DNA of 64,000 nt from Spirosoma aureum (GTDB taxonomy: Bacteria > Bacteroidota > Bacteroidia > Cytophagales > Spirosomataceae), in the NCBI RefSeq assembly GCF_011604685.1, contig NZ_CP050063.1, forward strand, positions 2,378,501 through 2,442,500, written 5' to 3'. Position numbers and translations under genes: made by a program. Every line of letters begins with the position of its first letter. Positions within the stretch are counted from its first letter, which is position 1. The notes beneath the pieces are model-generated. The model did no database searches, was not told where the DNA came from, and was given only the letters and a program-made list of their open reading frames with translations. Of the stretch, positions 46,953-63,904 are shown piece by piece.

Positions 46953-48329
46953 TCACAGCCCAAATTTCTCCAGTCGTCTGTACAACGCCTGACGGGATAC
47001 CCCCAGTTCTCGCGCAACATCCGTGATGCTACCCCGATGTTTCTGCATTGCCTGTTGAATCAATTGACGCTCCATGTCTTCCAGTTGCAGCGTTTCGTTT
47101 ACCGGAGATGTTGTTGTAGACGCGTCTTTTCGGAATACAAAATTGCCCGGTTCCAGGAGAGTGCCCTGCGTTAGTTCAGGACGGGCCAGAATAACGGCCC
47201 GCTCAACAGCATGCTGTAGTTCACGCACGTTTCCAGGCCAGCGATATTGTTTCATTTCAGCCAATAATGCCGGGCTCAGCCCCGAAACGGATCGATTGTA
47301 TTGCTTGGCATATTTTTTTAGAAAATGTTCGGCCAGCAGACCAATATCCGACGGACGTTCGCGTAGGGGAGGTAAATGAAGCTCAATTGTGTTGATCCGA
47401 TAAAGCAAATCCTGCCGAAATTGCCGCTCGGCTACGCGTTGATTCAGGTCAGCATTCGTTGCGCAGACGAGCCGGACATCTATTGGCCGGGCCTTGTTCG
47501 AACCAACGCGTGTTACCTGCCGCTGTTGCAGGACGGTTAACAAACGGGCTTGTTGAGAAGGAGAAAGATTACCAATCTCGTCCAGAAAAATTGTTCCGCC
47601 GTTCGCTTCTTCGAACCGACCAGCCCGATCGTCGCGGGCATCGGTAAACGCACCCTTCACATGCCCGAAAACTTCACTCTCAAACAGGCTTTCGGTCAGC
47701 GCACCTACATCAACGCTTATAAACGGTTTGTCCCGGCGATCTGACTGTTCGTGAATTGCCCGGGCGATTAAATCTTTGCCCGTTCCATTCTCTCCCAAAA
47801 TCAGCACGTTGGCGTCAGTAGGAGCAACACGTTCGACGGTTTCCAGAACCGGACGCATGGCCGAGCCGATGATGGTGGCATGTTTCCCATTTACTTTGGC
47901 CGATTGTTTGTCTTTGGCGCCCTTTTCGCCGTCTTCTTTTTCGTCCTTTCGCCCTTCAACTGCCCCGCGGATGGTATCCAGAAACTTATCATTTTGCCAG
48001 GGTTTGAGCACAAAATCAATGGCACCGGCTTTCATGGCCCGTACAGCCATTTCGACGTCGCCATACGCCGTAAACAAAATTACCCGAGCGGCCGGATCGA
48101 TATCTAAAATACGATCAAGCCAGGCAAATCCCTCACGGCCACTGCTAACATCACGCTGAAAATTCATGTCCAGCACAATTGCGTCGTATCGGTTATTGTT
48201 GAGCAGAAAAGGCAGTTTTTCGGGATTTTTTTCGATGTCCACCGCGCCGAAATGTCGTTTCAGCAGCAACCGGGCAGCCAGCAGCACGTCGGGGTCATCG
48301 TCGACGAGGAGAAGTTTAGCATCTTGCAT
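46953..48329 (-). CDS. Sigma-54-dependent response regulator, likely controls the ABC cluster
   Basis: A 458-residue NtrC-type activator. The receiver domain has D54 in [12 protein letters not shown] charged linker (about 120-145) precedes the AAA+ domain with Walker A GENGTGKD, Walker B FLDEIGNL and the sigma-54 contact loop as GAFTDA in place of the usual GAFTGA. The C-terminal Fis-type helix-turn-helix is [20 protein letters not shown]. The start at 48329 ([14 protein letters not shown]) is right for a receiver; the in-frame ATG at 48380 adds an unlikely tail and lies before the -7 box. The kinase at 43058 and the sigma-54-type promoters at 50296 and 60483 are its likely partner and targets. 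Confidence 0.9.
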
Positions 48330-50193: not shown

Positions 50194-50209
50194 TAAATGA
50201 ACCGGTTTT

Positions 50210-50245
50210 GAAACCGGACAGCTATTTGTCCGAAACCGGACAGCT
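50210..50245. promoter_or_regulatory. Activator-binding site upstream of the ABC cluster
   Basis: The 14-mer GAAACCGGACAGCT occurs at 50210-50223 and 50232-50245, a 22-base period. Within it TGTCCG (50227-50232) and CGGACA (50237-50242) form the palindrome TGTCCG-N4-CGGACA, with a further CGGACA at 50215. The same palindrome occurs at 60416-60431. It is 53 bases from the -24 element, suiting an NtrC-type activator. Confidence 0.7.
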
Positions 50246-50295
50246 GTAATTTTTAGTTCTGAATTAATTTGTTGATAATCAGTATATTTTATTAG

Positions 50296-50311
50296 TTGGC
50301 ACGACTATTGG
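50296..50311 (+). promoter_or_regulatory. Sigma-54-type promoter of the ABC cluster
   Basis: TTGGCACGACTATTGG matches the sigma-54 consensus except that the -12 box ends GG rather than GC. An IHF-consensus box (TAATTTGTTGATA, 50265-50277) lies between the activator site and the promoter. The adaptor gene begins 64 bases downstream. Confidence 0.7.
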
Positions 50312-50374
50312 CTCAAAAGGAGTAAAGCACACGCTTAGTGTTTTATTTCTTAATGTGCTAATTGAAAAATTACA

Positions 50375-51622
50375 ATGGATCGCGCCTTACCTAAACGTTT
50401 CTGGACAACACAACGTATCGCAATTTTTGGTGGTGGTACGCTGATTTTGAGTCTATTAGCTTATACGTTCCTGTTTGCTGACCGCCGGTCGAAACTGAAC
50501 GTCGAAAAAGATAAAATCACCGTCTCGAACGTATCTACCGGACCGTTTGAGGACTTCATCGCCGTTACGGGCGTCGTTCAACCGCTGAAAACTATTCGAT
50601 TGGATGCCATCGAGGGCGGTTATGTAACATCAAAACTCGTTGAGGGTGGCAACATGGTTAAGAAGGGCGATGTGCTCCTGAAGCTCGAAAACCAGAGCCT
50701 TAAACTGAGCTTTCTACAATCGGAAACAGAAGCCAATCGACTTGTCAACGACTTGCAGAATACGCGCCAACGGATACAGATCGAACGATTTACGCTCCGT
50801 AAAACGCTGGCTGATGTAGATGCTCAAATTTCTCAGGCGAAAGACACTTACGATCGTCAGGAAAAGCTCTACAAAGATAAAGTTGTGTCAGAAGAAGACT
50901 ATCTGAAAGCGAAACGGGCTTACGAACGATTAGTCACCCAGCGTACCATCGAAATCGAAACGCAGAAGTATCAGGAGGAAAACGCAAAATTTCAGATCAA
51001 ACAACTTGAGGGTACCTTGCAACGTACGCAGCGAAATGTCGCTCTTTGGCAACAGACGCTCGATAATCTGGTCGTCAAAGCACCGGTATCGGGTCAGTTG
51101 TCGAGTATCGATGTCGAAGTTGGGTCGAACATTAACCGGGGCCAGAATATTGGTCAGATCGATGATCTAAATGGGTTTAAAATGCGGGTTGGTATTGATG
51201 AACACTACATTAGCCGCGTATTTTCGGGCCTGAAAGGATCATTTGAGTTCAACGGGAAAATGCACGATCTGGAAATTAGTCGCGTGTATCCCGAAGTAAA
51301 AAGTGGTCGATTTGAAGTTGATATGGTTTTTCCGAAGGGCACACCCGAAGGCATCAAGCGCGGTCAATCATCACCGATTCAGCTGGAGCTGGGCAAAGCA
51401 GCAAAAGCTACGTTACTGCCCGTAGGTGGTTTCTTCTCCGACACAGGTGGTAACTGGGTATACGTAGTCGATAAGTCGGGCAAGCGAGCGGTGAAGCGGC
51501 CAATTACGCTGGGCCGTAAAAACCCGGAGTTTTATGAAGTGCTTGAAGGTTTGCAGCCCGGCGAGCAGGTTATTACGAGTTCTTACGAAAATTTTGGCGA
51601 TAACGAAGTTCTAGAATTTTAA
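50375..51622 (+). CDS. MacA/HlyD-like periplasmic adaptor of the ABC cluster
   Basis: A 415-residue membrane-fusion protein. A single N-terminal helix (IAIFGGGTLILSLLAYTFLF, about residues 15-34) anchors it. Then come a lipoyl half (FIAVTGVVQPLKTIRLDAIE), a coiled-coil hairpin at about residues 105-225 (many Glu/Lys heptads), the second lipoyl half (VVKAPVSGQLSSIDVEVGSN), and beta-barrel and membrane-proximal domains. It is the first gene after the sigma-54-type promoter and is followed 25 bases later by the ATPase gene. It would link the inner-membrane ABC complexes to an outer-membrane TolC-like partner that is not encoded in this window. Confidence 0.92.
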   Translation: MDRALPKRFWTTQRIAIFGGGTLILSLLAYTFLFADRRSKLNVEKDKITVSNVSTGPFEDFIAVTGVVQPLKTIRLDAIEGGYVTSKLVEGGNMVKKGDVLLKLENQSLKLSFLQSETEANRLVNDLQNTRQRIQIERFTLRKTLADVDAQISQAKDTYDRQEKLYKDKVVSEEDYLKAKRAYERLVTQRTIEIETQKYQEENAKFQIKQLEGTLQRTQRNVALWQQTLDNLVVKAPVSGQLSSIDVEVGSNINRGQNIGQIDDLNGFKMRVGIDEHYISRVFSGLKGSFEFNGKMHDLEISRVYPEVKSGRFEVDMVFPKGTPEGIKRGQSSPIQLELGKAAKATLLPVGGFFSDTGGNWVYVVDKSGKRAVKRPITLGRKNPEFYEVLEGLQPGEQVITSSYENFGDNEVLEF

Positions 51623-51647
51623 ACCCTCAGAACCATTCTGAAAAAGT

Positions 51648-52325
51648 ATGATCCAGACAGTTAACCTACAGAAACTCTTCGCTACCGAAGAAGTAGAAAC
51701 CACCGCCCTCAATGGCATCAACATGGACGTTAAAGACGGCGAGTTCGTGGCCATCATGGGTCCGTCCGGTTGTGGTAAATCCACCCTGCTAAACATCCTT
51801 GGCCTGTTAGACAATCCGAGCGAGGGCGAATACAATTTCTACGGAACAGCTGTTGCCAAAATGACTGAGCGCCAGCGGGCGCAGTTGCGGAAAGGCTCTA
51901 TCGGGTTCGTGTTTCAGAGCTTTAACCTGATCGACGAACTTACCGTCTATGAAAACGTCGAACTGCCACTGCTTTATCTTAAAACGCCTACCGACGAACG
52001 CAAAAAGCGCGTTGAAGAAGCCCTCGAACGCATGAGCATTATGCACCGGCGTAATCACTTCCCGCAGCAACTCTCGGGTGGTCAGCAACAACGGACAGCT
52101 ATTGCACGGGCGGTTGTTGCAAAACCAAAATTAATCCTGGCGGATGAGCCGACGGGTAACCTCGACTCGAAAAACGGCGAGGAAGTGATGAAGCTTCTTG
52201 GAGAATTAAATGACGAAGGAACAACGATTATCATGGTAACGCACTCACCCTACGATGCTGGCTTTGCGCACCGTATTGTGAACCTGTTCGATGGTAAAGT
52301 TGTGACGGAAAACTTCCACGTTTAA
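51648..52325 (+). CDS. MacB/LolD-type ABC transporter ATP-binding protein
   Basis: A 225-residue ATPase subunit. Walker A is GPSGCGKST (about residues 38-46), the Q loop FQSFNLIDELTVYEN, the signature LSGGQQQRTAIARAVV (about 142-157), Walker B LILADEPTGNLD and the switch His in MVTHSPYDA. The layout, with MIQTVNLQKLF at the start, is typical of the MacB/LolD group that powers FtsX-type permeases. It is the only ABC ATPase gene in the window, although at least four permease genes follow. Confidence 0.97.
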   Translation: MIQTVNLQKLFATEEVETTALNGINMDVKDGEFVAIMGPSGCGKSTLLNILGLLDNPSEGEYNFYGTAVAKMTERQRAQLRKGSIGFVFQSFNLIDELTVYENVELPLLYLKTPTDERKKRVEEALERMSIMHRRNHFPQQLSGGQQQRTAIARAVVAKPKLILADEPTGNLDSKNGEEVMKLLGELNDEGTTIIMVTHSPYDAGFAHRIVNLFDGKVVTENFHV

Positions 52326-52369
52326 CTCGCGTAGAAAGCCGTTTTACAGGAAAGATTTAAGTCTGATTG

Positions 52370-52424
52370 CAAGACCTGGGAAAAAAAGATGTGGTTAACA
52401 GACCGCTATCATTCCTGGGTCTTG
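52370..52424. terminator. Hairpin after the ATPase gene
   Basis: Eleven-bp arms (52370-52380 and 52414-52424) pair with two G-U wobbles, followed by the permease promoter region. In 52326-52658 I see only this hairpin and a decayed minus-strand frame, with no clear promoter for the permease. Confidence 0.45.
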
Positions 52425-52656
52425 TCGTTGAAGACTAAGCCTGCCGGAATACCATATTTATTTTTGTCAGTCAGCTGATTAATTCTTTCGGCGCCGTGTT
52501 CAGGCCAATTGTCTGACAAAGCTCAACAATGGCTTTTGCCTGTTCTGATGGATAATCGTATTGCACTAAATCAGGAACAGAGCTTCCAAAACCTTCAGTA
52601 AGCAACGTTACTGGAAGTGGAGCAACTGTGCTACAGTTCGAAATTAACCCCAACAA
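52409..52656 (-). pseudogene. Decayed gene fragment of unknown family
   Basis: A minus-strand frame from ATG 52656 to TGA 52471 reads like normal protein (VPDLVQYDYPSEQAKAIVEL, then CQTIGLNTAPKELIS). A one-base shift at its end opens another stretch, NQLTDKNKYGIPAGLVFNDK followed by TQE and TGA at 52409-52411. The natural composition in both segments suggests one old gene broken by a single-base change and cut off at its 5' side by the permease gene. The family is not recognised. Confidence 0.35.
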
Positions 52657-52658
52657 CT

Positions 52659-55016
52659 ATGTTCCGCAATTACCTCAAAATTGCAGTTCGGAGTTTGCTA
52701 AAGAACAAACTCTACTCATCCATCAACGTATTGGGGTTAGCGCTCGGAATGGCGTGTAGTTTGCTGATTGGGCTCTGGGTACGTGATGAACTGAGCTATG
52801 ATCGCTTTCTGCCCGATGCGGAGCATATCCAGTATGTTCGGGTTAATTTTCCTTATAACGGCGAAACCGTCACGAATTTCGTCACACCCGGCCCTTTACA
52901 GGAAGCCATTGCGAAAGATGTGCCTCAGGTGGCCGCTGTCACAAAAATTAATTATGGGCCGGAGCTTTTGATAAAAGTCGGTGAAAGAAACGCCAAAGAA
53001 AAAGGTCATTACGCCACCGACGATTTTTTTGGGGTATTCGATCTGCCCGTAGTTGATGGCAATCCCAAAGCGGCACTAGCCCAAACCAATCAGATTGTTA
53101 TTACCAAAAAGATAGCCGAAAAATATTTCCCGAATAGCCCGGCCATTGGTAAAACACTGCAACTTGACAATGACAAATTCTACGTTGTTGGTGCCGTAAT
53201 TGACGATTTACCGCACAACTCAACGCTGCAATTCGACTGGCTCGTAAACTGGAAAGTACAGGAGCAGGATTGGATGAAAACCTGGGGCAATAATGGGTTC
53301 TATACGTATGTTCGGCTCAAACCTAATACGACGATTGCCCAGGCCGAAGCCGCCATGAAACATATCTATCCGCGCTACGGAGGAAAAAACTTCGATACAG
53401 GACGGCCAACATTGCAACCCATGACCGACCTGCACCTGTATGCAGACTACAAAAATGGACACTCGGTTGGGGGACGGATTGAATACGTTCGCATTTTCTC
53501 GATTGTTGCGCTGTTTATCCTGCTCATTGCCTGTATCAATTTCATGAATCTGGCAACCGCCCGCTCGGCAATGCGTGCCAAAGAAGTGGGCGTCAGAAAA
53601 GTGGTTGGCGCTTTACGTTCATCGCTGATCGGACAGTTTTTGAGCGAATCAATCGTTACGAGTTTATTAGCCGTTGTGTTGGCATTCGGGCTGGTTTGGG
53701 CCGTTTTGCCAACCTTTAACGCCTTATTTGGCAAACAGATCGTACTTAATCTTGCCGAGCCGACACTCTGGCTCATTGTTACAATACTGGTACTGATAAC
53801 AGGCTTCCTGTCAGGAAGTTACCCGGCTTTGTTTCTGTCATCGCTGCAACCCATCAAAATTCTCAAGGGTCGCTTACAGTTCGGTGCCGGACCTGCTCTG
53901 TTTCGCCGGGCACTGGTTGTCTTTCAGTTTTCGCTGTCTATTTTCCTGATTGTGGGTATGCTGGTTGTGGGTAAACAGATGGATTATCTGCGCACTAAAA
54001 ACCTGGGCCTTGACCGCGAAAATGTGGTTTACATACCCCTGGAAGGCGAAATTGCTCAGCCTAAAAAGCTGGAACCATTTCGACAGGAGGTACTGCGGGC
54101 ACCATCCATTGCTTCGGCATCAACAGCGATGTCATTACCCGTAAGTGTACAAAGCACATCCGGCGATTTGAACTGGACGGGCAAAGACCCAGCCTTACAA
54201 ACAACCGTCTCAGCGATGGCTATCGGGGCCGATTTCATTAAAACGATGAATATCAAATTGGTAAGTGGTCGCGATTTTCGCGCAGATAGCCCCGCCGATT
54301 CATCAAATTACCTGATCAACGAAGCCACGGCCAAACTGATGGGAATGAAAGATCCCGTTGGTAAAGAAATCACATTTTGGAATGGAAAAGGACGGGTTGT
54401 CGGGCTGATGAAAGATTTTCATCTGACTTCATTACACGAGGCCATTAATCCCTTGGTATTGGTTTTTAATCCGTTGAATACGAGTTATTTACTGGTGAAA
54501 ACTCGTGCTGGTCAAACCCAGCAGGCCATCGCTGATTTAGAACGAATCACGAAGGAGTTTAATCCGAATTATCCCTTCAACTATCATTTTGTTGACGAAG
54601 CCTACGAAAAATTATACCGTAGTGAACAGCAGGTGAACGCCCTGGTCAATTATTTCGGCGTACTCGCTATTCTGATTTCGTGTCTGGGCTTATTTGCTCT
54701 CGCGGCATTTACCGCTGAACAGCGTACCAAGGAAATAGGCGTCCGGAAAGTGCTGGGCGCCAGTGTCACAAACATCATTGGGTTGCTTTCTAAAGACTTC
54801 CTGAAACTCGTCGTCATTGCGCTTGTCCTGGCTTCGCCGTTAGCCTGGTGGGCGGTGAGTACCTGGCTGGGGACGTTTGCATACCAAACAGAATTGGGCT
54901 GGTGGATTTTCGGTGTTGCCGGTCTTCTGGCACTATTAATCGCTTTTTTAACGGTCAGCTATCAGAGCATTAAAGCAGCCCTGATGAATCCGGTTACGAG
55001 TTTGCGAAGCGAATAA
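52659..55016 (+). CDS. FtsX/MacB-type ABC permease, paralogue 1
   Basis: A 785-residue permease with two MacB_PCD-FtsX units. TM1 (SSINVLGLALGMACSLLIGL) is followed by a periplasmic domain to about residue 280; three helices follow between about 285 and 400 (IACINFMNLATARSAMRAKE, GVRKVVGALRSSL). A second unit has a helix near 430, a periplasmic domain and three C-terminal helices (SCLGLFALAAFTAEQRTKEI). The start at 52659 (MFRNYLKIAVRSLLKN) matches its paralogues. It probably moves or senses lipophilic or peptide cargo using the ATPase upstream. Confidence 0.93.
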   Translation: MFRNYLKIAVRSLLKNKLYSSINVLGLALGMACSLLIGLWVRDELSYDRFLPDAEHIQYVRVNFPYNGETVTNFVTPGPLQEAIAKDVPQVAAVTKINYGPELLIKVGERNAKEKGHYATDDFFGVFDLPVVDGNPKAALAQTNQIVITKKIAEKYFPNSPAIGKTLQLDNDKFYVVGAVIDDLPHNSTLQFDWLVNWKVQEQDWMKTWGNNGFYTYVRLKPNTTIAQAEAAMKHIYPRYGGKNFDTGRPTLQPMTDLHLYADYKNGHSVGGRIEYVRIFSIVALFILLIACINFMNLATARSAMRAKEVGVRKVVGALRSSLIGQFLSESIVTSLLAVVLAFGLVWAVLPTFNALFGKQIVLNLAEPTLWLIVTILVLITGFLSGSYPALFLSSLQPIKILKGRLQFGAGPALFRRALVVFQFSLSIFLIVGMLVVGKQMDYLRTKNLGLDRENVVYIPLEGEIAQPKKLEPFRQEVLRAPSIASASTAMSLPVSVQSTSGDLNWTGKDPALQTTVSAMAIGADFIKTMNIKLVSGRDFRADSPADSSNYLINEATAKLMGMKDPVGKEITFWNGKGRVVGLMKDFHLTSLHEAINPLVLVFNPLNTSYLLVKTRAGQTQQAIADLERITKEFNPNYPFNYHFVDEAYEKLYRSEQQVNALVNYFGVLAILISCLGLFALAAFTAEQRTKEIGVRKVLGASVTNIIGLLSKDFLKLVVIALVLASPLAWWAVSTWLGTFAYQTELGWWIFGVAGLLALLIAFLTVSYQSIKAALMNPVTSLRSE

Positions 55017-55050
55017 AGGACCTTAAACGGTATGAAGTAGCTTTTCTTTT

Positions 55051-55088
55051 TTCTGCTCGCTACTGGCCTGTGCTTTTAGCGAGCAGAA
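55051..55088. terminator. 12-bp hairpin between permeases 1 and 2
   Basis: Perfect arms 55051-55062 and 55077-55088 with a 14-base loop, 35 bases after permease 1. A T-run precedes the stem rather than following it, so strong termination on the plus strand is uncertain. Confidence 0.5.
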
Positions 55089-55198
55089 TCATTTGTAGGA
55101 AGTGTAGTCTGCCGAAAAGTATGTTGAGTCATAATAGGGGATATGAATCCTTGTAAAATACTGATTTTCAAAAAATTACATACAGATAGATCATTCGT

Positions 55199-57616
55199 AT
55201 GCTGCGCAATTATCTGAAAATAGCCTTTCGCACGCTCTGGAAAAACAGTACACATTCACTGATCAACATTGTTGGTTTATCGGTCGCGTTTGGTACCTGT
55301 GTATTGCTATTTCTGACAGCCACCTTTGAACTATCCTATGACCGGTTTCATACGGATTCAGACCGGTTGTTTCGTCTTTATTTCCTGTCTTCTAATCGAG
55401 ATGGTACTCCCGACAAAAGTAGTACGATGCCTTATCCGATTTCGCCCGCACTCAAAGCGGAGTTTCCGGAGATCGAAGGGGTTTCCCGCTATTTTAATCG
55501 AACGGCGAGCGTTCGGCGGAAAGATCAGGCCTACGGCAAAAACGTCAGAATGGTCGGTGCTGATTTTCTGAAAATGTTCACGTTTCTGCTCCTGAAAGGT
55601 AATTCAGGAACGGCGATGAATAGCTTAAGTGATATTGTCATCAGCGAGAGCATGGCCAGGGATATTTTCGGTAAGGAAGACCCACTCGGTAAACCACTCC
55701 AGCTTCGGATGAATAACACCTGGCAGGCCTTTACGGTCACGGGTGTGGTTAGTGATGCGCCTAAAAATTCAACATTCGACTATGATGCACTTATTCGAAG
55801 CGAGAATGCCGGCGACTATGAAGAAAATAAAAGCCGTTGGGACCATGGTAATCATGATGTCTACGTCAAACTAAAAGCAGGTACTGACCCGCAAACGCTG
55901 CAAAGGCGGACGCAGGCATTCATGGACAAATACTTTGCGAAAGACAATAAAGAGCAAAAGGAGTTGGGGTATCCAAAAAATGAGCTGGGTTTCCAGCGAA
56001 GCCTGATTCTACAGCCGTTATTAACGGTTCACTTTGACACCGAAACCACGCACGGGCTTGGTATTAGCCGCACATACGTAGTCACGTTGTTGCTGGTTGG
56101 GTTCTTCATACTGGCGATTGCCTGTATTAATTTCATCAATCTAACAATTGCTCAATCGTTCTCACGGGCGCGCGAAGTAGGCGTTCGGAAGTCACTGGGG
56201 GCGCAGCGTGTGCAGTTATTTGGGCAAATATGGGGCGAAACACTGATGCTTTGTCTGGGCGCCTTACTGATTGGATTGGGGTTAGCTTATTCGGCCTTAC
56301 CTTACTTTAATCGATCATTTCAAAGCCACCTGACATTAGCCGATTTTTTGAAACCGAGCGTGTTACTTATAACCGGATTCGGTTTTCTAGTCATTACACT
56401 GGTGGCTGGTGGCTATCCATCCTGGTTCGTGACACGTTTCAATGCCGTTGAGGTGCTGAAAGGGAGAGTGAAGATGAGTCGACCCGGTTTGCTCCGTAAT
56501 TCGCTCATTGTTACCCAGTTTACCATTGCCTGCCTGCTCATTGTGTGTACGGTCATTGTCCGTCAGCAGATCAATTACCTGCAACAGAAACCGATGGGCC
56601 TTGATAAGGAGCAGGTTGTCAGCATACCGGTAGGGAATGACTTAAATGGTAACGATGCGCTGAAAACCATGCGAGACCGACTGGCTAATCAACCAAACAT
56701 AGCCGCCGTATCGGGTTCAGGCGTTAACATTGGTGCCGGGCTGGATGGAAGTTCATCGCGCATGATGTACGGCTTTCTATACGGCAAACGAAATATCACC
56801 TGCGACTGGCTACGGATCGACACAGATTACCTGAAAACGATGGGTGTCAAATTGCTACAGGGCCGTGATTTTAGTACATCGTTCAGTACCGACTCGAGTT
56901 CGGCCATACTCATTACGCAAAGTATGGCAAAGCAATTGGGAGAAACCAACCCAATTGGCAAGTTCATCAAGCCTGATAACAAAGAGTTTCAGATCGTTGG
57001 TGTTGTCTCTGACTTCAATCTGTATTCACTACATCAGGAGGCCAAGCCCATTGCGCTGCAAATGCAATCGAACTCTCCCATTCAATACATTCTGGTTCGG
57101 GTAAATCCTCAAAATCTGACTGGCGCGATGGAAAGCATTAAAAAAGCCTGGAAGACGGTTGCGCCGAAGCAGGAGTTTATTGGATCATTTCTGGATGAAA
57201 ATACCGAGCGGTGGTATAAAAAAGAACAGCGGTTGGCTACCATTTTCTCATCGGCCGCCGGGGTTGCTATTTTATTATCGTGTATGGGATTGTTTTCCAT
57301 TGCGTTGATATCGATTCAGCAACGGACCAAAGAAATTGGGGTACGTAAAGTGCTGGGTGCATCCGTAACCAGCATCGTAACCCTGCTTTCGAAAGATTTT
57401 CTGAAACTTGTTTTGATTGCCATAGTCGTTGCATCACCCATTGCGTGGTGGGCCATGAATAAATGGTTGCAGGACTTCGCCTATAAGATTGACATTGACT
57501 GGTGGGTGTTTGTACTGGCGGGCGCATTAGCCATTGCCATTGCCTTGATAACCGTTTGTTTCCAAAGTATTAAGGCGGCTCTGATGAATCCAGTAAAATC
57601 ATTACGTTCCGAATAA
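55199..57616 (+). CDS. FtsX/MacB-type ABC permease, paralogue 2
   Basis: An 805-residue permease. It shares the N-terminus MLRNYLKIAFRTLWKN, the loop IACINFINLTIAQSFSRARE, GVRKSLGAQRVQLFG, and the C-terminus SIKAALMNPVKSLRSE with its neighbours. It differs in the central periplasmic domains. It has the same eight-helix layout. There is no ATPase gene beside it, so it presumably shares the one at 51648. A 182-base gap with a hairpin separates it from permease 1. Confidence 0.93.
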   Translation: MLRNYLKIAFRTLWKNSTHSLINIVGLSVAFGTCVLLFLTATFELSYDRFHTDSDRLFRLYFLSSNRDGTPDKSSTMPYPISPALKAEFPEIEGVSRYFNRTASVRRKDQAYGKNVRMVGADFLKMFTFLLLKGNSGTAMNSLSDIVISESMARDIFGKEDPLGKPLQLRMNNTWQAFTVTGVVSDAPKNSTFDYDALIRSENAGDYEENKSRWDHGNHDVYVKLKAGTDPQTLQRRTQAFMDKYFAKDNKEQKELGYPKNELGFQRSLILQPLLTVHFDTETTHGLGISRTYVVTLLLVGFFILAIACINFINLTIAQSFSRAREVGVRKSLGAQRVQLFGQIWGETLMLCLGALLIGLGLAYSALPYFNRSFQSHLTLADFLKPSVLLITGFGFLVITLVAGGYPSWFVTRFNAVEVLKGRVKMSRPGLLRNSLIVTQFTIACLLIVCTVIVRQQINYLQQKPMGLDKEQVVSIPVGNDLNGNDALKTMRDRLANQPNIAAVSGSGVNIGAGLDGSSSRMMYGFLYGKRNITCDWLRIDTDYLKTMGVKLLQGRDFSTSFSTDSSSAILITQSMAKQLGETNPIGKFIKPDNKEFQIVGVVSDFNLYSLHQEAKPIALQMQSNSPIQYILVRVNPQNLTGAMESIKKAWKTVAPKQEFIGSFLDENTERWYKKEQRLATIFSSAAGVAILLSCMGLFSIALISIQQRTKEIGVRKVLGASVTSIVTLLSKDFLKLVLIAIVVASPIAWWAMNKWLQDFAYKIDIDWWVFVLAGALAIAIALITVCFQSIKAALMNPVKSLRSE

Positions 57617-57661
57617 TCTAGAGTTGCAGGTATCTCGCTATCAGATACCTGCAACTCTAGA
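57617..57661 (+). terminator. Perfect 19-bp hairpin between permease 2 and a small gene
   Basis: Arms 57617-57635 and 57643-57661 are exact complements with a 7-base loop, directly after the stop of permease 2 and followed by ATTTT. It is 20 bases before the small gene at 57681. Confidence 0.7.
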
Positions 57662-57680
57662 TTTTCCTATTCCTAAAACC

Positions 57681-57875
57681 ATGCTTACTCAACTATACGA
57701 AAAATTAAGTGCACGACGGGATGCACTGGTCGCCTTATATGGCCATCGAAGCGGCTTGAGAGATTGTAATCCAGACGCTTATTCGCATTATCTACAGGAA
57801 ATCCGGGATTTGAACCGTCAGTTACGATTATTACGAGTAAGACTGATGAACAATTCTGGTCATCTGGCTGGCTAA
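57681..57875 (+). CDS. 64-residue basic hypothetical protein in the permease array
   Basis: A small, cytoplasmic, mostly helical protein rich in Arg and Leu (LTQLYEKLSARRDALVALYG; LQEIRDLNRQLRLLRVRLM). The ATG at 57681 is preferred; a longer reading from 57624 would begin inside the terminator hairpin. There is no signal peptide and no known domain. It lies between permeases 2 and 3 on the same strand, 33 bases before permease 3. It could be a small regulator or partner of the transporter; no function is claimed. Confidence 0.55.
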   Translation: MLTQLYEKLSARRDALVALYGHRSGLRDCNPDAYSHYLQEIRDLNRQLRLLRVRLMNNSGHLAG

Positions 57876-57908
57876 TCTGATAACTGGTTACTACATAAAT
57901 CCTCGATC

Positions 57909-60359
57909 ATGTTCCTCAACTACCTTAAAATCGCGTACCGAAATCTGCTTCGTCAGATGAGCTTTTCCGTCATCAACATTGTCGGGCTGACAGTCGGACT
58001 AACCTGTTGCTTTCTGATTCTGCTCTTTGTTCGTCACGAACTTAGCTACGATACATTTCATCAGAAATTTGACCGGATTTATCGGATTTCGTATTTACCC
58101 AAATTTGCCGGTTTGACAGAGCCGCTGGCCTTGACCCCACCGCCAGTTTCTCCATTGTTGACAGGTGCCTTTTCCGAAATTGAGAAATCGGCACGCGTGT
58201 ATAGGAGTAGTGCAACGATTGAAATACCCAATCCGCAACAGACTCGTCCCGTAAAATTCGATGAAGAACGATTTTTCTTTGGCGACTCGACACTGCTCGA
58301 TATTTTCTCGTTCAATTTCCGACAAGGCGATGCCCGAACGGCCCTGAAAGACAAATTTACTGTTGTCATCACCGACGAAATAGCCGCCAAATATTTTGGT
58401 ACGCAAAATCCACTTGGCAAAACCCTGATCTATGAAGGACAACATCCATTGCGCGTAACGGGTGTTGTGGATAAGTTTCCGGATAACTCGCACATTCATA
58501 TTGATTTGCTGTCGAATTATGAGACAATGTTTGCCACTGAAAGCGATCTGGTTCGGGAAAATCTCCCGCAAAACTGGGTCATTTCGCATGGATATACCTA
58601 TGTGCTGTTGCGGCCGGGACGATCGCCCGAATCTGTGAATGCCCGATTCCCGAAATTTTTGCTCGATCATGCCAATAAACAATTCGCCAAAGACATTGTC
58701 TATTCGCTCGAACCCCTGAAAGACATTCATCTTCGTTCCGATGCACAGAGTGGGCCTGAACCTTCGGGAAGCATGACCTACATTTATGTATTTATTGGCA
58801 TTGCCGTCATTACACTGCTGATTGCCTGTATCAATTTTGTGAATCTATCGACGGCCCGTTCGCTCAAACGGGCCAAAGAAGTTGGTATTCGTAAAGTGCT
58901 TGGTAGCGAAAAGAAGCAACTCATTGGGCAGTTTCTGGGAGAGTCAGTATTGCTTAGCAGTATTGCCTTACTGCTTTCTCTATTTCTGATTGCTTTACTG
59001 CTGCCTGTATTGAATAATCTGACCGGTAAACAGCTTACGATAAGTTATTTTCTGACCAATGGATGGTTAATCCTGCTGTTTGTGGGAATGGGTTTATTGA
59101 CCGGGCTATTGGCAGGTAGTTATCCCGCTTTTTTTGTGTCCAGTTTCCAGCCAATTACTACGTTGAAAGGCAATTTTGTGAGTGGTAAGGCACGGGGTGG
59201 CGCAGTTCGGCAAGTATTGTTGGGCGCGCAGTTTGTGGCATCGATCGCATTGATTATTGGTGCTATAATTTCGTTCCAGCAGCTTCGGTATATGAAAGAC
59301 CAGCCGCTGGGTTTCGATAAAGACTTTATCATCACCGCCAATACCCGTAATGATAAAATTACGAACGTATTTGCCACGCGTACCGACAGTGCTTATCTAC
59401 GACTGAAGGCTTTTCGGGAGGTTCTGCTTAAAAATCCGCATGTTAAAGAAGTAACGTTATCGACCCGTCGGATGGGTGATGGTGCGGTACGACGAAATGT
59501 GGTTCCAGAAGGACACACACCCGACGATAATCTGTTTGTGGGGGCGATGGGTGTTGATCACAATTTTGCTGAAACCTATGGGTTGACCTTTGTTGCCGGA
59601 CGCAATTTTTCCGAAGCCTATCCGACTGATAAAACCTCGGCCTTCCTGATTAATGAAACGGGCGTAAAGCAACTCGGCTGGAAGTCACCAGACGCAGCCG
59701 TCGGCAAGTCGGTAAATCTCGAAGGCAAACAGGGAAAGATTGTTGGTGTGCTGAAAGACTTTCATAATCAATCGCTTCAGAACCCGATTGAAGGTATGCT
59801 ATTGACCATCGATCAGCCGTTATTGACATTATTCTCGATTAAAATTCAGCCTCAGCAGGTTCCCGAAACATTAGACGCAATACGGCAGGAGTGGGATCGG
59901 TATTTTCCAGAGAAAGTATTTGCGTATGAGTTTGTTGATCAGAATCTGGCGCAGCGCTACGAACGTGAACAACGGTTGAGTAAACTCATTAGTTATTTTG
60001 CCGGACTGGCCATTCTGATTTCCTGCCTGGGCTTGTTCGGATTGGTATCACTCGTAACGCAGCAGAAAACAAAAGAAATTGGTATTCGGAAAGTATTAGG
60101 CGCGTCAGTCACGAATATTGTTCGACTTGTGTCGAAAGATTTTGTCATTTTGGTCCTGATCGCCCTTGTCATTGCTTCTCCGGTTGCCTGGTGGGCTATG
60201 AACAAATGGCTAACGGCTTTTGCCTATCGAATTGACATTCACTGGTGGGTATTTGCGCTGGCAGGATTGCTGGTTGTCGTTGTAACAATACTAACCGTTA
60301 GCTTCCAGAGCATCAAAGCTGCCCTGGTAAATCCGGTCAAAAGTTTGCGGGCGGAGTAG
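57909..60359 (+). CDS. FtsX/MacB-type ABC permease, paralogue 3
   Basis: An 816-residue permease starting MFLNYLKIAYRNLLRQMSFS. It carries the same repeated landmarks, IACINFVNLSTARSLKRAKE followed by VGIRKVLGSEKKQLIG, and in the second unit SCLGLFGLVSLVTQQKTKEI and GIRKVLGASVTNIVRLVSKD. The periplasmic domain at residues 50-280 diverges from paralogues 1, 2 and 4. It follows the 64-residue gene by 33 bases. It ends 48 bases before the conserved activator palindrome of the next gene. Confidence 0.93.
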   Translation: MFLNYLKIAYRNLLRQMSFSVINIVGLTVGLTCCFLILLFVRHELSYDTFHQKFDRIYRISYLPKFAGLTEPLALTPPPVSPLLTGAFSEIEKSARVYRSSATIEIPNPQQTRPVKFDEERFFFGDSTLLDIFSFNFRQGDARTALKDKFTVVITDEIAAKYFGTQNPLGKTLIYEGQHPLRVTGVVDKFPDNSHIHIDLLSNYETMFATESDLVRENLPQNWVISHGYTYVLLRPGRSPESVNARFPKFLLDHANKQFAKDIVYSLEPLKDIHLRSDAQSGPEPSGSMTYIYVFIGIAVITLLIACINFVNLSTARSLKRAKEVGIRKVLGSEKKQLIGQFLGESVLLSSIALLLSLFLIALLLPVLNNLTGKQLTISYFLTNGWLILLFVGMGLLTGLLAGSYPAFFVSSFQPITTLKGNFVSGKARGGAVRQVLLGAQFVASIALIIGAIISFQQLRYMKDQPLGFDKDFIITANTRNDKITNVFATRTDSAYLRLKAFREVLLKNPHVKEVTLSTRRMGDGAVRRNVVPEGHTPDDNLFVGAMGVDHNFAETYGLTFVAGRNFSEAYPTDKTSAFLINETGVKQLGWKSPDAAVGKSVNLEGKQGKIVGVLKDFHNQSLQNPIEGMLLTIDQPLLTLFSIKIQPQQVPETLDAIRQEWDRYFPEKVFAYEFVDQNLAQRYEREQRLSKLISYFAGLAILISCLGLFGLVSLVTQQKTKEIGIRKVLGASVTNIVRLVSKDFVILVLIALVIASPVAWWAMNKWLTAFAYRIDIHWWVFALAGLLVVVVTILTVSFQSIKAALVNPVKSLRAE

Positions 60360-60407
60360 GCTGAACGGCGCGTAAGCCTTGGTGTGATTCTGACTGTCCA
60401 CTGCCGT

Positions 60408-60439
60408 ACGAAAAATGTCCGTTTTCGGACATTTTTCGT
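60408..60439. promoter_or_regulatory. Activator-binding palindrome inside the permease array
   Basis: Perfect 14-bp arms (60408-60421 and 60426-60439) around TTTT. Its core, TGTCCG-TTTT-CGGACA (60416-60431), is the same TGTCCG-N4-CGGACA as at 50227-50242. It is 51 bases from the -24 element, against 53 at the adaptor promoter. It could also act as a terminator for permease 3. Confidence 0.65.
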
Positions 60440-60482
60440 GTTCTGTTCGGTGTAATTTGCTGATATTCAGAAAGTTTATAGC

Positions 60483-60498
60483 TTGGCATGATCCTAGC
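60483..60498 (+). promoter_or_regulatory. Sigma-54-type promoter of the secreted-protein gene
   Basis: TTGGCATGATCCTAGC fits the -24/-12 consensus with GG and GC twelve bases apart. An IHF-like box (TAATTTGCTGATA, 60453-60465, one base from consensus) lies upstream, 30 bases before the -24 box. The gene starts at 60556. Confidence 0.7.
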
Positions 60499-60555
60499 TG
60501 GAAACATATCGCACAACTATGCTCACCTCTAATTAAGACGAACCGCTGCCGATTT

Positions 60556-61152
60556 ATGAAAACGCTACTTACCCTCCTCCTCCTTGCAGTCGGCTTTAGC
60601 GCAGTAGCGCAACGGTCATCGTTTAGCAAAGAAGTGACGACCGACGGTCAGCAACTTCGGATTCGTGTCGATGCTGAACAATCAGGGCGCTCCCTGCATT
60701 TCAATCGTTCATTCGATGTATCTGAACTGGATGCCAGAGCGGTTAAAGCACTGGAGAATCATATACTCGATTCGCTGGATCAGGAATTTGATGGTCGTTA
60801 TGCAGGGGTATTTAATGAGCGTAAGCGCGACGTAAAAAACAAGAAGAAGCAGAGTGATGAAGCAACTGTTTCTATGGTTGTCGTGAACACCAACGAAGAC
60901 ACGAACCGCGACGAAAAAATTGTTGCCACATCGAAGCATGAGTTATCGTCAAGTGATGTAGCTCCAGCATCTGTCATTCACCGGGAAGACAAAGAAAACG
61001 GTCGGCTCTGGATGCAATATACATTCAAGAAAGACGGTGATGAACTCGTGTTCGAGCGTACTGCCAATGTTCTCGGCAAAAGCGAGAGCGAAAAGAAGGC
61101 TATCATTCAGGAAACCGAACGTAGTCTGGGTATCAAATCCATGAATCAGTAG
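60556..61152 (+). CDS. Secreted protein of unknown function under a sigma-54-type promoter
   Basis: A 198-residue exported protein. MKTLLTLLLLAVGFSAVAQ is a clear signal peptide. The mature part is hydrophilic and strongly charged, with two similar stretches, LRIRVDAEQSGRSLHFNRSF and YTFKKDGDELVFERTANVLG, which suggests a repeated beta unit. A Lys/Arg-rich linker lies at about residues 90-105. A longer reading from 60415 would run through the promoter and is rejected. No family is recognised. It has its own activator site and terminator inside the permease array and so is probably made together with the transporter. Confidence 0.75.
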   Translation: MKTLLTLLLLAVGFSAVAQRSSFSKEVTTDGQQLRIRVDAEQSGRSLHFNRSFDVSELDARAVKALENHILDSLDQEFDGRYAGVFNERKRDVKNKKKQSDEATVSMVVVNTNEDTNRDEKIVATSKHELSSSDVAPASVIHREDKENGRLWMQYTFKKDGDELVFERTANVLGKSESEKKAIIQETERSLGIKSMNQ

Positions 61153-61179
61153 ATAAAACTGCATAGGGCAGCTGATATA

Positions 61180-61213
61180 AGCAGGGAAACCGTTTCTCTG
61201 CTCTAAATTTTTT
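61180..61213 (+). terminator. Hairpin with T-run after the secreted-protein gene
   Basis: Imperfect 11-bp arms around 61180-61202 followed by ATTTTTT, 27 bases after the stop codon. Confidence 0.5.
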
Positions 61214-61250
61214 ATGCCCTGACCAAGAAAATCATCTCATTATCCGAAAC

Positions 61251-61277
61251 AAGTTGACACCCTGTGATAGTCAACTT
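61251..61277. repeat. Inverted repeat in the gap before permease 4
   Basis: Perfect 8-bp arms AAGTTGAC (61251-61258) and GTCAACTT (61270-61277). Its position before a terminator and a new transport gene allows either an operator or an RNA stem. Confidence 0.35.
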
Positions 61278-61296
61278 ATGTGAGCGGTATGGCTCT

Positions 61297-61337
61297 AAAA
61301 GAATAACATTGATCGTATTGGTCACTGTTATTCTTTT
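61297..61337 (+). terminator. 12-bp hairpin with long T-run
   Basis: Arms 61297-61308 and 61326-61337 are exact complements, ending in TTTTTTT. It is a typical intrinsic terminator, well after the secreted-protein gene. The 376-base gap 61153-61528 therefore holds terminators and probably a promoter for permease 4, though I see no clear -7 or -24 box. Confidence 0.7.
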
Positions 61338-61528
61338 TTTATAGGACATTGCTTACAGATAGAATGGAAATTGGCAGGAATTGTAAAGCTAACTCCTTGC
61401 TGATCGTAAGTTTTTGATGCCCTAAAGCAGCGTTTCTGACCCCGATTGCATCTTTACGCTGTCTGTGAGTATCTCTCTGCACGGTGTTTTGCTAACGCAT
61501 GAGAAACGCTCAATCAACCCCTAACACT

Positions 61529-63904
61529 ATGCTGCGAAACTATTTTAAAATAGCCCTCCGGAACCTGTCTAAAAACAAGGTTTATTCGTTTATCAACATT
61601 TTTGGTTTAGCCGTGGGTATGGCGGTGGCTATGCTCATTGGCTTATGGATTTACGACGAACTATCCTTCAATAAATTCCATAAAGGATATGATCGGCTGG
61701 CGCAATTGTACATCAATCAGACGTTCAACGGCACCACAGGAAGTAGCCGGGCCGTTTCGATTCCGTCGGCCACCGAGATAAAAACCAAATATGCTCCCGA
61801 TTTCAAATACGCATCGCTGGCCTCCTGGAATTTCGGGCATCTGCTGGTAAATGGTGACAAGAAAATCAATAAAGAGGGCATGTATGTAGAGCCTGTTTTT
61901 CCGCAGATGCTCTCGCTCAAGATGCTCAAAGGCGACTATGCTACGGCCCTTAAAGAGCCCGCTTCTATTTTGTTGTCGGAGTCGGTTGCTAAAGTCCTTT
62001 TTGGGGATAAAGATCCGCTCAACAAAATCATTAAAATTGACAGTAAAAACAACATGAAAGTGACGGGTATTTTTGAAGACTTACCCTTTAACTCTGACTT
62101 TTACGATACAAAATTTTATTTGCCGTGGAGCGCCTATCTAGCCGAACAGTCCTGGGTAAAAGAGTCGCAGCAACAGTGGAGTAATCACTCGTTTCAAACC
62201 TTCGTTCAGGTAGCTGACCAGGCCGACATGAATAAGGTTTCGGCCAAGATCAGAGACGTAGAGAAAAAACACACGTCGCCCCAGGAAAATCCGGAGTATT
62301 TTCTGCATCCGATGAGTCATTGGCATTTATACTCTGACTTTAAGGAAGGGAAAAATGTAGGCGGAGCCATTCAGTTCGTATGGCTGTTTGCTATTATCGG
62401 TGTCTTTGTGTTGCTGTTGGCCTGCATCAATTTTATGAACCTGAGCACGGCCCGATCCGAAAAACGCGCCAAAGAAGTCGGTATCCGAAAAGCCGTTGGT
62501 TCGCTCCGCCAACAACTCATAACTCAATTTCTGAGCGAGTCTCTGCTAGTAGTTGGTTTTGCGCTGGTTTTGGCCATTCTGATCGTTCTGATTTCTTTAT
62601 CGGCATTCAACGATTTATCGGGTAAGCAAGTTAGTATTCCGTATCAGGCTCCTCTGTTCTGGGCAATGATTATTGGATTTTCGCTCATGACGGGCTTGCT
62701 GTCAGGTAGTTACCCGGCTCTGTATCTGTCGTCGTTTAATCCGCTGGAGGTACTCAAAGGAACATTCAGAGTGGGTCGATGGGCAGCTGTGCCTCGCAAG
62801 GTGTTAGTCGTGGTTCAGTTTACCGTTTCCATTACGCTGATCATTGGAACCATTATCGTTTTTCGGCAAATTCAGCACGCCAAAAATCGACCCGTTGGCT
62901 ATGACCGCCAGGGATTGCTGCAAATCTCGTTAAGCTCCAACCTCAACAAGAAATATGACCCCTTGCGGGATGATTTGTTGAAATCAGGGGCCGTTTATGA
63001 AATGAGCGAATCATCCAGCCCCACAACGGGTGTCTGGTCAAACCAGATTGGTTTTGAATGGGAGGGGAAAGATCCGAAATCGATACCCTTGTTTGGTGTG
63101 GTTGCCTGCACCCATCATTTCGGAAAAACCATAAACTGGAAGATTAAAGAAGGCCGGGATTTTTCAAGGGATTTCTCAACCGATACCTCCGCTTTTGTCC
63201 TGAATGAAGCGGCTGTTAAGCTGACGGGTTTGAAAAATATTGTTGGTAAAATCATTCGCTATAATGATAAACCCTGTACGGTTGTCGGCGTGGTGAAAGA
63301 TATGGTGATGGAGTCGCCGTACACACCCATCAAACCAACCATTTTTATGGTAAATTATGATTGGGCGAATGTGATCAATGTCAAACTAATGCCTAATGCA
63401 CCGGTAGAAGATGCCCTTAAGAAAGTAGAAGCGGTTTTCAAAAAATACGATTCCGACAGTCCGTTTGATTTCAAGTTTGCTGATGAACAATACGATGCTA
63501 AATTCAGGTCGGAGGAGCGCGTTGGGAAACTGGCCCGGATTTTTGCGGTACTGGCCATTTTTATCAGTTGTTTAGGGCTGTTTGGGCTGGCATCGTTCAT
63601 TGCCGAACAGCGAATTAAAGAAATTGGTGTTCGTAAAGTACTGGGCGCTTCCGTTTTGAATCTGTGGGGCCTACTCTCTAAAGACTTTGTTCGACTGGTC
63701 ATCATCTCCTTCCTGATTGCAACGCCCATTGCTTATTTTTTCCTGGACGATTGGCTGCAGGAATACGAATACCGTACCAACATCTCCTGGTGGATCTTTG
63801 TACTGTCGGGTATTGGGGCCACTGTAATTACCTTATTGACTGTCAGTTATCAGGCCATTCGGGCGGCCCTGATGAATCCGGTGAAGAGTTTGCGATCTGA
63901 ATAA
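61529..63904 (+). CDS. FtsX/MacB-type ABC permease, paralogue 4
   Basis: A 791-residue permease with the same plan: MLRNYFKIALRNLSKNKVYS at the start, LACINFMNLSTARSEKRAKE and GIRKAVGSLRQQLITQFLSE in the first unit, and SCLGLFGLASFIAEQRIKEI and GVRKVLGASVLNLWGLLSKD in the second, ending NPVKSLRSE. An in-frame ATG at 61499 would add ten residues and is less like the paralogues. It has its own leader with terminators upstream, so it may form a separate transcript. Confidence 0.93.
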   Translation: MLRNYFKIALRNLSKNKVYSFINIFGLAVGMAVAMLIGLWIYDELSFNKFHKGYDRLAQLYINQTFNGTTGSSRAVSIPSATEIKTKYAPDFKYASLASWNFGHLLVNGDKKINKEGMYVEPVFPQMLSLKMLKGDYATALKEPASILLSESVAKVLFGDKDPLNKIIKIDSKNNMKVTGIFEDLPFNSDFYDTKFYLPWSAYLAEQSWVKESQQQWSNHSFQTFVQVADQADMNKVSAKIRDVEKKHTSPQENPEYFLHPMSHWHLYSDFKEGKNVGGAIQFVWLFAIIGVFVLLLACINFMNLSTARSEKRAKEVGIRKAVGSLRQQLITQFLSESLLVVGFALVLAILIVLISLSAFNDLSGKQVSIPYQAPLFWAMIIGFSLMTGLLSGSYPALYLSSFNPLEVLKGTFRVGRWAAVPRKVLVVVQFTVSITLIIGTIIVFRQIQHAKNRPVGYDRQGLLQISLSSNLNKKYDPLRDDLLKSGAVYEMSESSSPTTGVWSNQIGFEWEGKDPKSIPLFGVVACTHHFGKTINWKIKEGRDFSRDFSTDTSAFVLNEAAVKLTGLKNIVGKIIRYNDKPCTVVGVVKDMVMESPYTPIKPTIFMVNYDWANVINVKLMPNAPVEDALKKVEAVFKKYDSDSPFDFKFADEQYDAKFRSEERVGKLARIFAVLAIFISCLGLFGLASFIAEQRIKEIGVRKVLGASVLNLWGLLSKDFVRLVIISFLIATPIAYFFLDDWLQEYEYRTNISWWIFVLSGIGATVITLLTVSYQAIRAALMNPVKSLRSE

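What the first reader, a model, noticed from the sequence alone, without database searches (positions are those of the whole stretch)
50210..60498. Two matching sigma-54-type promoters in the ABC cluster
Upstream of the adaptor gene (50375) and the secreted-protein gene (60556) the same parts occur in the same order: palindrome TGTCCG-N4-CGGACA (50227-50242; 60416-60431), an IHF-like box TAATTTG[T/C]TGATA (50265; 60453), and a TTGGCA-type -24/-12 element (50296; 60483). The gap from palindrome to -24 is 53 and 51 bases, and from the IHF-like box start to -24 is 31 and 30 bases. The two regions are otherwise different, so shared function, not recent duplication, is the simpler reading. The sigma-54 activator at 46953-48329 is the nearest candidate regulator.
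Basis: partly seen in the sequence, partly recalled or inferred. Interest (0 to 1): 0.78.

Follow-up and report, generated by a model that had tools for sequence, protein, structure and literature searches.

The report
One switch for many exporter permeases
Two matching control sequences in a soil-type bacterium belong to a genome-wide set of about thirty-five such switches, most of them in front of membrane exporter genes, and probably worked by one sensor-activated regulator encoded close by.

Summary
In this 8.9-Mb Spirosoma-type genome the exact palindrome occurs only at the two reported places. Relaxed to TGTCCR-N4-YGGACA with TGGCA 50-65 bases downstream it occurs 23 times, the reversed control twice. 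A 28-site model finds 32 strong and 3 weaker full-length sites. Of these 35, 23 lie within 900 bp upstream of a duplicated FtsX permease gene, and 3 more with other genes between. At least 66 such permeases exist, 41 in one co-directional 124-kb array.

A second palindrome lies 21-23 bp upstream in 25 of 28 sites. The distance from the nearer palindrome to the -24/-12 element falls in two classes, 66-70 and 77-81 bp, about one helical turn apart. About half the short-class spacers carry an IHF-type box. Genomes with three or more sites: 29 of 127 with the regulator (46953-48329), 0 of 114 without.

Best reading: a two-component, sigma-54-dependent regulon for a modular ABC export system. A 2025 paper already links sigma-54 to FtsX permeases in Bacteroidia; motif, regulator and regulon were not found in print. 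Binding and expression are untested.

The parts
50205..50220 (+). distal (upstream) degenerate copy of the enhancer palindrome, site 1; only the right arm CGGACA (50215-50220) is good
   Evidence: 8 of 12 letters
50227..50242 (+). proximal enhancer palindrome TGTCCGAAACCGGACA, site 1
50265..50277 (+). IHF-consensus box TAATTTGTTGATA (YAANNNNTTGATW, no mismatch), 31 bp before the -24 element
50296..50312 (+). sigma-54-type -24/-12 element TTGGCACGACTATTGGC, site 1 (GG where GC is usual at -12)
60395..60410 (+). distal enhancer palindrome TGTCCACTGCCGTACG, site 2
   Evidence: 10 of 12 letters, 21 bp from the proximal one
60416..60431 (+). proximal enhancer palindrome TGTCCGTTTTCGGACA, site 2
60453..60465 (+). 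IHF-like box TAATTTGCTGATA (1 mismatch), 30 bp before the -24 element
60483..60499 (+). sigma-54-type -24/-12 element TTGGCATGATCCTAGCT, site 2
43058..44440 (-). sensor histidine kinase (PAS-like + HATPase_c), probable partner of the response regulator; directly behind it in several other genera
46953..48329 (-). NtrC-type response regulator: receiver + Sigma54_activat (GAFTDA loop) + Fis-type HTH; proposed binder of the palindromes
50375..51622 (+). periplasmic adaptor (HlyD/RND_mfp; DarC-like), first gene behind promoter 1
51648..52325 (+). stand-alone ABC ATPase (MacB/LolD/DarD-like)
52617..55016 (+). duplicated FtsX/MacB_PCD permease 1 of the 41-gene array
55199..57616 (+). duplicated FtsX permease 2 of the array
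57909..60359 (+). duplicated FtsX permease 3 of the array
60556..61152 (+). secreted-type protein without Pfam match at cut-off or NCBIfam match, first gene behind promoter 2
61499..63904 (+). duplicated FtsX permease 4 of the array, behind the secreted-protein gene

Best explanation
The two sites are members of one sigma-54 regulon. The histidine kinase (43058-44440) phosphorylates the NtrC-type response regulator (46953-48329). The regulator binds a tandem pair of TGTCCR-N4-YGGACA palindromes about two helical turns apart. The DNA between is bent, by an IHF-type protein at YAANNNNTTGATW in many promoters of the short class and perhaps by a hairpin or A-tract element in others. The activator then reaches sigma-54 polymerase at the -24/-12 element from one of two distances, about 68 or about 79 bp, one helical turn apart. 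This switches on together the adaptor and ATPase of a tripartite ABC exporter and about 26 transcription units that hold duplicated FtsX permeases, plus several secreted proteins. Shown by sequence: the shared architecture, its two spacing classes, its target genes, its conservation and its linkage to the regulator gene in other genera. Inferred: binding, phosphorylation, sigma-54 use, and that the permeases share one ATPase and adaptor.
For: Whole-genome pattern 23 hits against 2 control. Model R1: 32 sites at E <= 6.2e-9 plus 3 weaker. 23 of 35 sites within 900 bp of a permease gene (chance about 7e-41 if 7,400 genes are assumed); 17 of 21 dispersed permease units have a site. Distances from palindrome to -24 element, scanned from -200 to +300: of 28 own and 60 relatives' pairs, all but one (50 bp) fit; every one of the 22 pairs at 89-100 bp has a nearer palindrome 20-22 bp downstream, so the nearer distances are 66-70 or 77-81 bp in 87 of 88. 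Distal palindrome with at least 9 of 12 letters in 25 of 28 against 0.29 in shuffles. IHF consensus with at most 1 mismatch in 8 of 15 own short-class spacers against 1.04 in shuffles, all eight 30-31 bp from -24, and in 17 of 28 relatives' short spacers against 1.73. Within 400 bp upstream of the adaptor in 80 relatives' loci: palindrome and core in 40, core only in 25, palindrome only in 14, neither in 1 whose contig starts there. Regulator ortholog on the opposite strand in 71 of 80, within 550 bp in 53. Pattern hits in 60 of 127 genomes with the regulator against 13 of 114 without. All 36 genomes of the genus have model matches at E <= 1e-4, 4 to 52 each, antisense echoes included.
Against: No transcript, footprint or mutant exists. 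Four of 21 dispersed permease units, and 8 of 15 gaps of 300 bp or more inside the array, have no site; a loose scan found none there, and a ninth gap (1506 bp) has only a weak one that the loose scan missed. 67 of 127 genomes with a regulator ortholog had no hit of the own-genome pattern, and the reversed control scores 96 in the 127 against 241 true hits, so much of the signal comes from a minority of genomes. In 25 of 80 adaptor loci the strict palindrome was not found. In the window, regulator and site 1 are 1.9 kb apart with another gene between. A second activator at 106810-107310 has the same GAFTDA loop, a similar HTH, 44% identity, and MacB-type permease genes nearby. Model R1 was built from sites of the same genome.
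Confidence: 0.8

Rival explanations
1. The sites form a real sigma-54 regulon, but a different activator (for instance the 44%-identical paralog at 106810-107310 of the genome, next to MacB-type genes) binds the palindromes, alone or together with the window's regulator.
For: Ten strong sigma-54 activators in the genome. The paralog shares GAFTDA and the [10 protein letters not shown] helix and lies close to MacB_PCD genes at 103846-105812.
Against: No palindrome with at most 2 mismatches lies in the 3.5 kb fetched around that paralog; the same is nearly true of the window regulator in this genome (one chance-like 2-mismatch place), but in other genera its orthologs stand beside the site (53 of 80 loci within 550 bp of the adaptor). 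Of four family members without the regulator at E <= 1e-120 (G119, G222, G233, G250), three have no pattern hit and one has one; in three of the four no relative at all was found at E <= 1e-70. Their genomes are also the smallest of the family.
Confidence: 0.13
2. The palindrome is an operator for a repressor or other factor of the permease cluster, and TTGGCA is a chance companion or a non-sigma-54 promoter.
For: TGTCCR-N4-YGGACA is a simple palindrome. Site 1 lacks the canonical GC at -12.
Against: Nearer palindrome and -24/-12 element keep two distances one helical turn apart in 87 of 88 pairs. The linked regulator is a sigma-54 activator.
Confidence: 0.04
3. The palindromes are intrinsic terminators of the upstream genes (site 2 forms a 12-bp stem with a T run behind the third permease).
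For: GAAAAATGTCCG-TTTT-CGGACATTTTTC at 60410-60437 looks like a terminator hairpin.
Against: The letters TGTCC/GGACA themselves, not merely a hairpin, are kept at the aligned sites, mostly without flanking A and T runs and with a -24/-12 element at fixed distance downstream. Upstream gene ends were not mapped for the dispersed sites.
Confidence: 0.03

Closest known systems
NtrC/NifA-type sigma-54 promoters (tandem upstream activator sites, IHF, -24/-12)
   Same: Tandem palindromic activator sites, an IHF-type box between them and the core, GG-N10-G core, two-component activator with receiver, AAA+ and Fis-type HTH. The textbook anatomy is recalled, not from a call.
   Different: Different recognition sequence (NtrC's is recalled as TGCACC-N5-GGTGCA), target genes are ABC export parts, and in the long class (13 of 28 own promoters) no IHF box was found.
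Sigma-54 control of COG0577/FtsX-like permeases in Bacteroidia (PMC12316311, PLoS One 2025; passages seen)
   Same: That paper reports enrichment of predicted sigma-54 promoters before FtsX-like permeases in Bacteroidia and calls it first evidence.
   Different: It is a class-level statistic. In the passages seen it names no enhancer motif, no activator and no regulon of this kind; 'palindrom' does not occur in its main text. Its supplements were not seen.
ADOP (TIGR03434, acidobacterial duplicated orphan permease) with PadR (TIGR03433)
   Same: Window permease 52617-55016 matches ADOP over nearly its whole length (352 bits); many units are PadR + permease. PMC11573002 (one passage seen) notes 28 and 33 such copies in two Dyadobacter genomes.
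   Different: Both curated cut-offs are missed (352 of 622.3 bits; 36.7 of 101.8 bits).
DarBCD darobactin exporter
   Same: Same three-part make-up: duplicated permease, adaptor, lone ATPase; DarB, DarC and DarD models match the window proteins.
   Different: All below cut-off (150 of 700, 199 of 450, 278 of 375 bits); no antibiotic peptide genes were sought; here one adaptor/ATPase pair stands beside dozens of permeases.

Membership tests
sigma-54-dependent promoter | -24/-12 element with GG-N10-GC | tested here: met
   GG-N10-G in the 28 aligned sites with few exceptions; the final C is variable and is G at site 1
sigma-54-dependent promoter | upstream activator sites at helically phased distance | tested here: met
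   two distance classes about 11 bp apart, 87 of 88 pairs; the period itself is poorly fixed by two classes (10.5-11 fits about equally)
sigma-54-dependent promoter | rpoN gene present and required | not tested
NtrC-family two-component activator | receiver, AAA+ Sigma54_activat with GAFTGA-type loop, Fis-type HTH | tested here: met
   (loop reads GAFTDA)
NtrC-family two-component activator | binds the palindrome | not testable with these tools
   only linkage and co-occurrence
IHF-assisted promoter | WATCAANNNNTTR (either strand) between activator site and -24 | tested here: met
   short class only: exact 4 of 15, <=1 mismatch 8 of 15, shuffle means 0.06 and 1.04; long class 0 of 13
ADOP (TIGR03434) | score over curated cut-off 622.3 | tested here: not met
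   352 bits; one permease scanned
PadR_acidobact (TIGR03433) | score over curated cut-off 101.8 | tested here: not met
   36.7 bits; Pfam PadR PF03551 is met, 39.5 of 27; one protein scanned
DarBCD exporter (NF038008/NF038010/NF038007) | scores over curated cut-offs | tested here: not met
   150/700, 199/450, 278/375 bits

The most novel reading that the evidence does not exclude
One two-component sigma-54 activator commands a combinatorial export machine: one or two shared ATPases and adaptors, perhaps a TolC channel, and dozens of interchangeable duplicated permeases. The PadR-permease modules carry a distinct promoter class, one helical turn longer, in which the IHF box is replaced by a hairpin or A-tract/T-tract element between enhancer and core. 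That element insulates each module from read-through or supplies the DNA bend itself, so that a global activator and a local PadR repressor together decide which permeases are made.
Probability: 0.3. Interest if true: 0.8.

Novelty: new member of a known kind. Interest (0 to 1): 0.62.

Why it matters
Duplicated FtsX permeases are present in dozens of copies in such genomes (66 here; 28 and 33 in two Dyadobacter genomes), and their signal and cargo are unknown. A single enhancer motif and a single named activator would give a handle: delete one regulator and the whole export programme should move. It also gives a natural set of about 35 promoters of one activator in two spacing classes, useful for studying DNA looping in sigma-54 activation.

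Tried and rejected
Palindrome alone with 2 mismatches: no enrichment over the reversed control (267 against 418). A loose -24/-12 scan of the window: 379 matches against 333 expected, not informative alone. Four spacing classes: my first reading took 89-92 and 100 bp as further helical steps; the check showed that each of those 22 pairs has a nearer palindrome 20-22 bp downstream, so only two classes remain (confidence lowered from 0.82 to 0.80 for this). TolC as a regulon member: a site lies on the TolC strand about 820 bp upstream of 7577466-7579055, with an oppositely oriented aminotransferase-like gene between (name from the look of the sequence); the site is found in 9 of the 30 same-genus loci examined, own included, of 32 genomes with a match, so membership is possible, not shown. 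Hairpin in the spacer: significant in 12 of 20 relatives' sites, 3 of 13 own long-class and 2 of 15 own short-class sites. The 20 were chosen's listing after hairpins had caught my eye there (10 of 11 of G079, 8 of 12 of G256, 2 of 6 of G045), so 12 of 20 is not an unbiased rate. Genome G019 looked like a regulator-poor exception, but its ortholog is split over the ends of the contig, 85% and 84% identical. Paper searches: by single words for ADOP and PadR only noise; sigma-54 + Spirosoma none; Spirosoma + FtsX one unrelated listing; others. The absence of this motif or regulon in print rests on those searches of open-access papers only; apart from passages of two papers I saw only listings.

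Full report
What is there. Both promoters are as described. The window lies at 2378501-2442500 of an 8,898,242-base chromosome. The nearest named relatives of the adaptor are Spirosoma proteins, the first nine at 91-95% identity, and several same-genus contigs have the lengths of named Spirosoma records, so the organism is taken to be a Spirosoma species. The exact palindrome occurs nowhere else in the genome.

The two sites are part of a genome-wide set. There are 35 own-genome places with at most one mismatch to TGTCCG-N4-CGGACA. In 19 of the 33 one-mismatch places the change is G to A at the inner base of an arm, giving TGTCCR-N4-YGGACA, and many have a TTGGCA...TTTG-like element 67-79 bases downstream (27 loci viewed). 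The pattern GTCCR-N4-YGGAC-N(50-65)-TGGCA gives 23 hits, its reversed control 2. A sequence-only model of 28 sites gives 68 matches at E <= 1: 32 full-length sites at E <= 6.2e-9, one more at 4.1e-6, and two weak ones (0.001 and 0.006); the other 33 are antisense echoes or partial matches and were dropped. Of the 35 palindromes, 29 lie in these 35 sites. The model was trained on sites of this genome, so its E-values are not independent of them; the pattern count and its control are.

The targets. I fetched the array and the dispersed permease neighbourhoods and found 66 duplicated FtsX/MacB_PCD permeases with a profile made from four window permeases: 41 in one array of 124 kb, all on the + strand, beginning in this window, and 25 dispersed in 21 units. 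MacB_PCD matches in the whole genome number 130, some in other, shorter MacB-type genes. Of the 35 sites, 23 lie within 900 bp upstream of one of these permeases on the same strand: 17 dispersed (17 of 21 units) and 6 in the array. Three more array sites lead units in which other genes precede the permease: adaptor and ATPase (site 1), the secreted protein (site 2), and a 378-aa protein behind the weak site at 2453022. The remaining nine lead a DUF4097 protein, four small DUF3244-type proteins (two of the four scanned, one over the Pfam cut-off), another secreted-type protein, a second lone ATPase, a possible TolC gene, and one unassigned place. Counter-examples: four dispersed units and 8 of 15 array gaps of 300 bp or more have no site even when up to four mismatches in all are allowed. 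Those array genes may be read from upstream sites or be under other control.

Anatomy. In 25 of 28 aligned sites a second palindrome with at least 9 of 12 letters lies 21-23 bp upstream (shuffles: mean 0.29, most 3); site 1 of the window is one of the three that fall short. In the own-genome stretches and the 80 relatives' loci, 88 palindrome/-24 pairs lie within -200 to +300. Twenty-two of them, at 89-100 bp, are the distal members of tandem pairs. Counting the nearer palindrome, distances are 66-70 bp (17 own, 45 relatives) or 77-81 bp (11 own, 14 relatives), with one relative at 50. Two classes about 11 bp apart fit one helical turn; a period of 10.5 to 11 fits about equally well, and related sequences are not independent. 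The counts list pairs, so a few promoters count twice. In the short class the spacer carries the IHF consensus: exact in 4 of 15, at most one mismatch in 8 of 15, at 30-31 bp before TTGG; in relatives 17 of 28 with at most one mismatch. In four Dyadobacter loci with the 80-bp spacing it lies at 41 bp, about one turn further. In the own long class it is absent in 13 of 13. Ten of those 13 promoters lead PadR-permease units, against 2 of 15 in the short class (counted; PadR was confirmed by Pfam for one, the others by a sequence motif in the script). Some long-class spacers, and many of the Fibrella-type spacers viewed, instead hold an A-tract, GC-rich stem, T-tract inverted repeat (sites chosen by eye).

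The regulator. Upstream of the adaptor in 80 relatives' loci, within 400 bp, palindrome and core are both found in 40, core only in 25, palindrome only in 14, and neither in one whose contig begins there. An ortholog of the response regulator (46953-48329; at least 59% identity) is within the fetched flank in 71 of 80, always on the opposite strand, and within 550 bp of the adaptor in 53, among them Dyadobacter, Runella, Emticicia, Larkinella and Chitinophaga loci. The nine without it include Fibrella, where the ortholog lies elsewhere in the genome in the two cases looked at (G079, G256). The histidine kinase follows the regulator directly in several genera; in the window the two are split by a desaturase and an acyltransferase-like gene, and the regulator is 1.9 kb from site 1. 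In a sample of 241 genomes of the order, 127 have a match to the regulator at E <= 1e-120. Pattern hits: 60 of 127 with it against 13 of 114 without; at least three hits in 29 of 127 against 0 of 114; total hits 241 (control 96) with it, 14 (control 25) without. Genome size and kinship are confounders. Not every regulator-bearing genome has hits; whether other spacings or motifs explain that was not tested.

Mechanism, step by step. Shown by sequence: tandem palindromes, two spacing classes, core element, IHF-type box in part of them, target set, conservation and linkage. From established knowledge of NtrC-type activators (recalled): phosphorylated receiver, hexamer formation, looping, ATP-driven opening of the sigma-54 closed complex. 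Inferred: that this kinase and this regulator act here, and that the permeases share the adaptor and ATPase. The signal and cargo are not known; the resemblance of the parts to DarBCD and MacAB suggests export of peptides or envelope-active compounds, a weak inference.

What is known. PMC12316311 (passages seen) reports class-level enrichment of sigma-54 promoters before COG0577/FtsX-like permeases in Bacteroidia. So the general link is in print; the enhancer motif, the activator, the spacing and the regulon were not found in the searches. PMC11573002 (one passage) records 28 and 33 'acidobacterial duplicated orphan permease' copies in two Dyadobacter genomes, of unknown function.

Verdict. 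The finding is real, its reading is supported, and it generalises to a large regulon. Mechanistically it belongs to a known kind; its content and size, and the two promoter classes, are what a specialist would find new.

Noticed in passing
window 52617-63904, continuing to genome position 2554952: Forty-one duplicated FtsX permease genes stand on one strand in about 124 kb, an unusually large tandem family.
   Followed up: partly
own-genome sites L139, L148, L016, L142; relatives L271, L272, L274, L276, L277, L279-L281, L284, L285, L287, L288: A terminator-like hairpin (A-tract, GC stem, T-tract) of varying sequence sits between the enhancer palindrome and the -24 element, where other promoters have the IHF box. 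Insulator or bend are both possible.
   Followed up: partly
genome 7579874-7579984 (L233), TolC at 7577466-7579055: A strong site points at a TolC-type gene across about 820 bp that hold an oppositely oriented aminotransferase-like gene; the site is found in 9 of 30 same-genus loci, own included. It would give a long antisense leader; the gene between was not checked in relatives.
   Followed up: partly
L146, L147, L154, L155 (genome 3955114, 4226697, 6045767, 7047575): Four scattered, closely similar small secreted-type proteins of 124-125 aa (DUF3244-like), each behind the same promoter type.
   Followed up: partly
genome 106810-107310 (L167) with MacB_PCD genes 103846-105812: A paralogous sigma-54 activator with GAFTDA and a similar HTH lies beside single MacB-type permeases, without the palindrome in the 3.5 kb fetched.
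   Followed up: partly
window 21249-21752 (-): A second sigma-54 activator domain lies in the window (genome 2399749-2400252); its targets were not studied.
   Followed up: no
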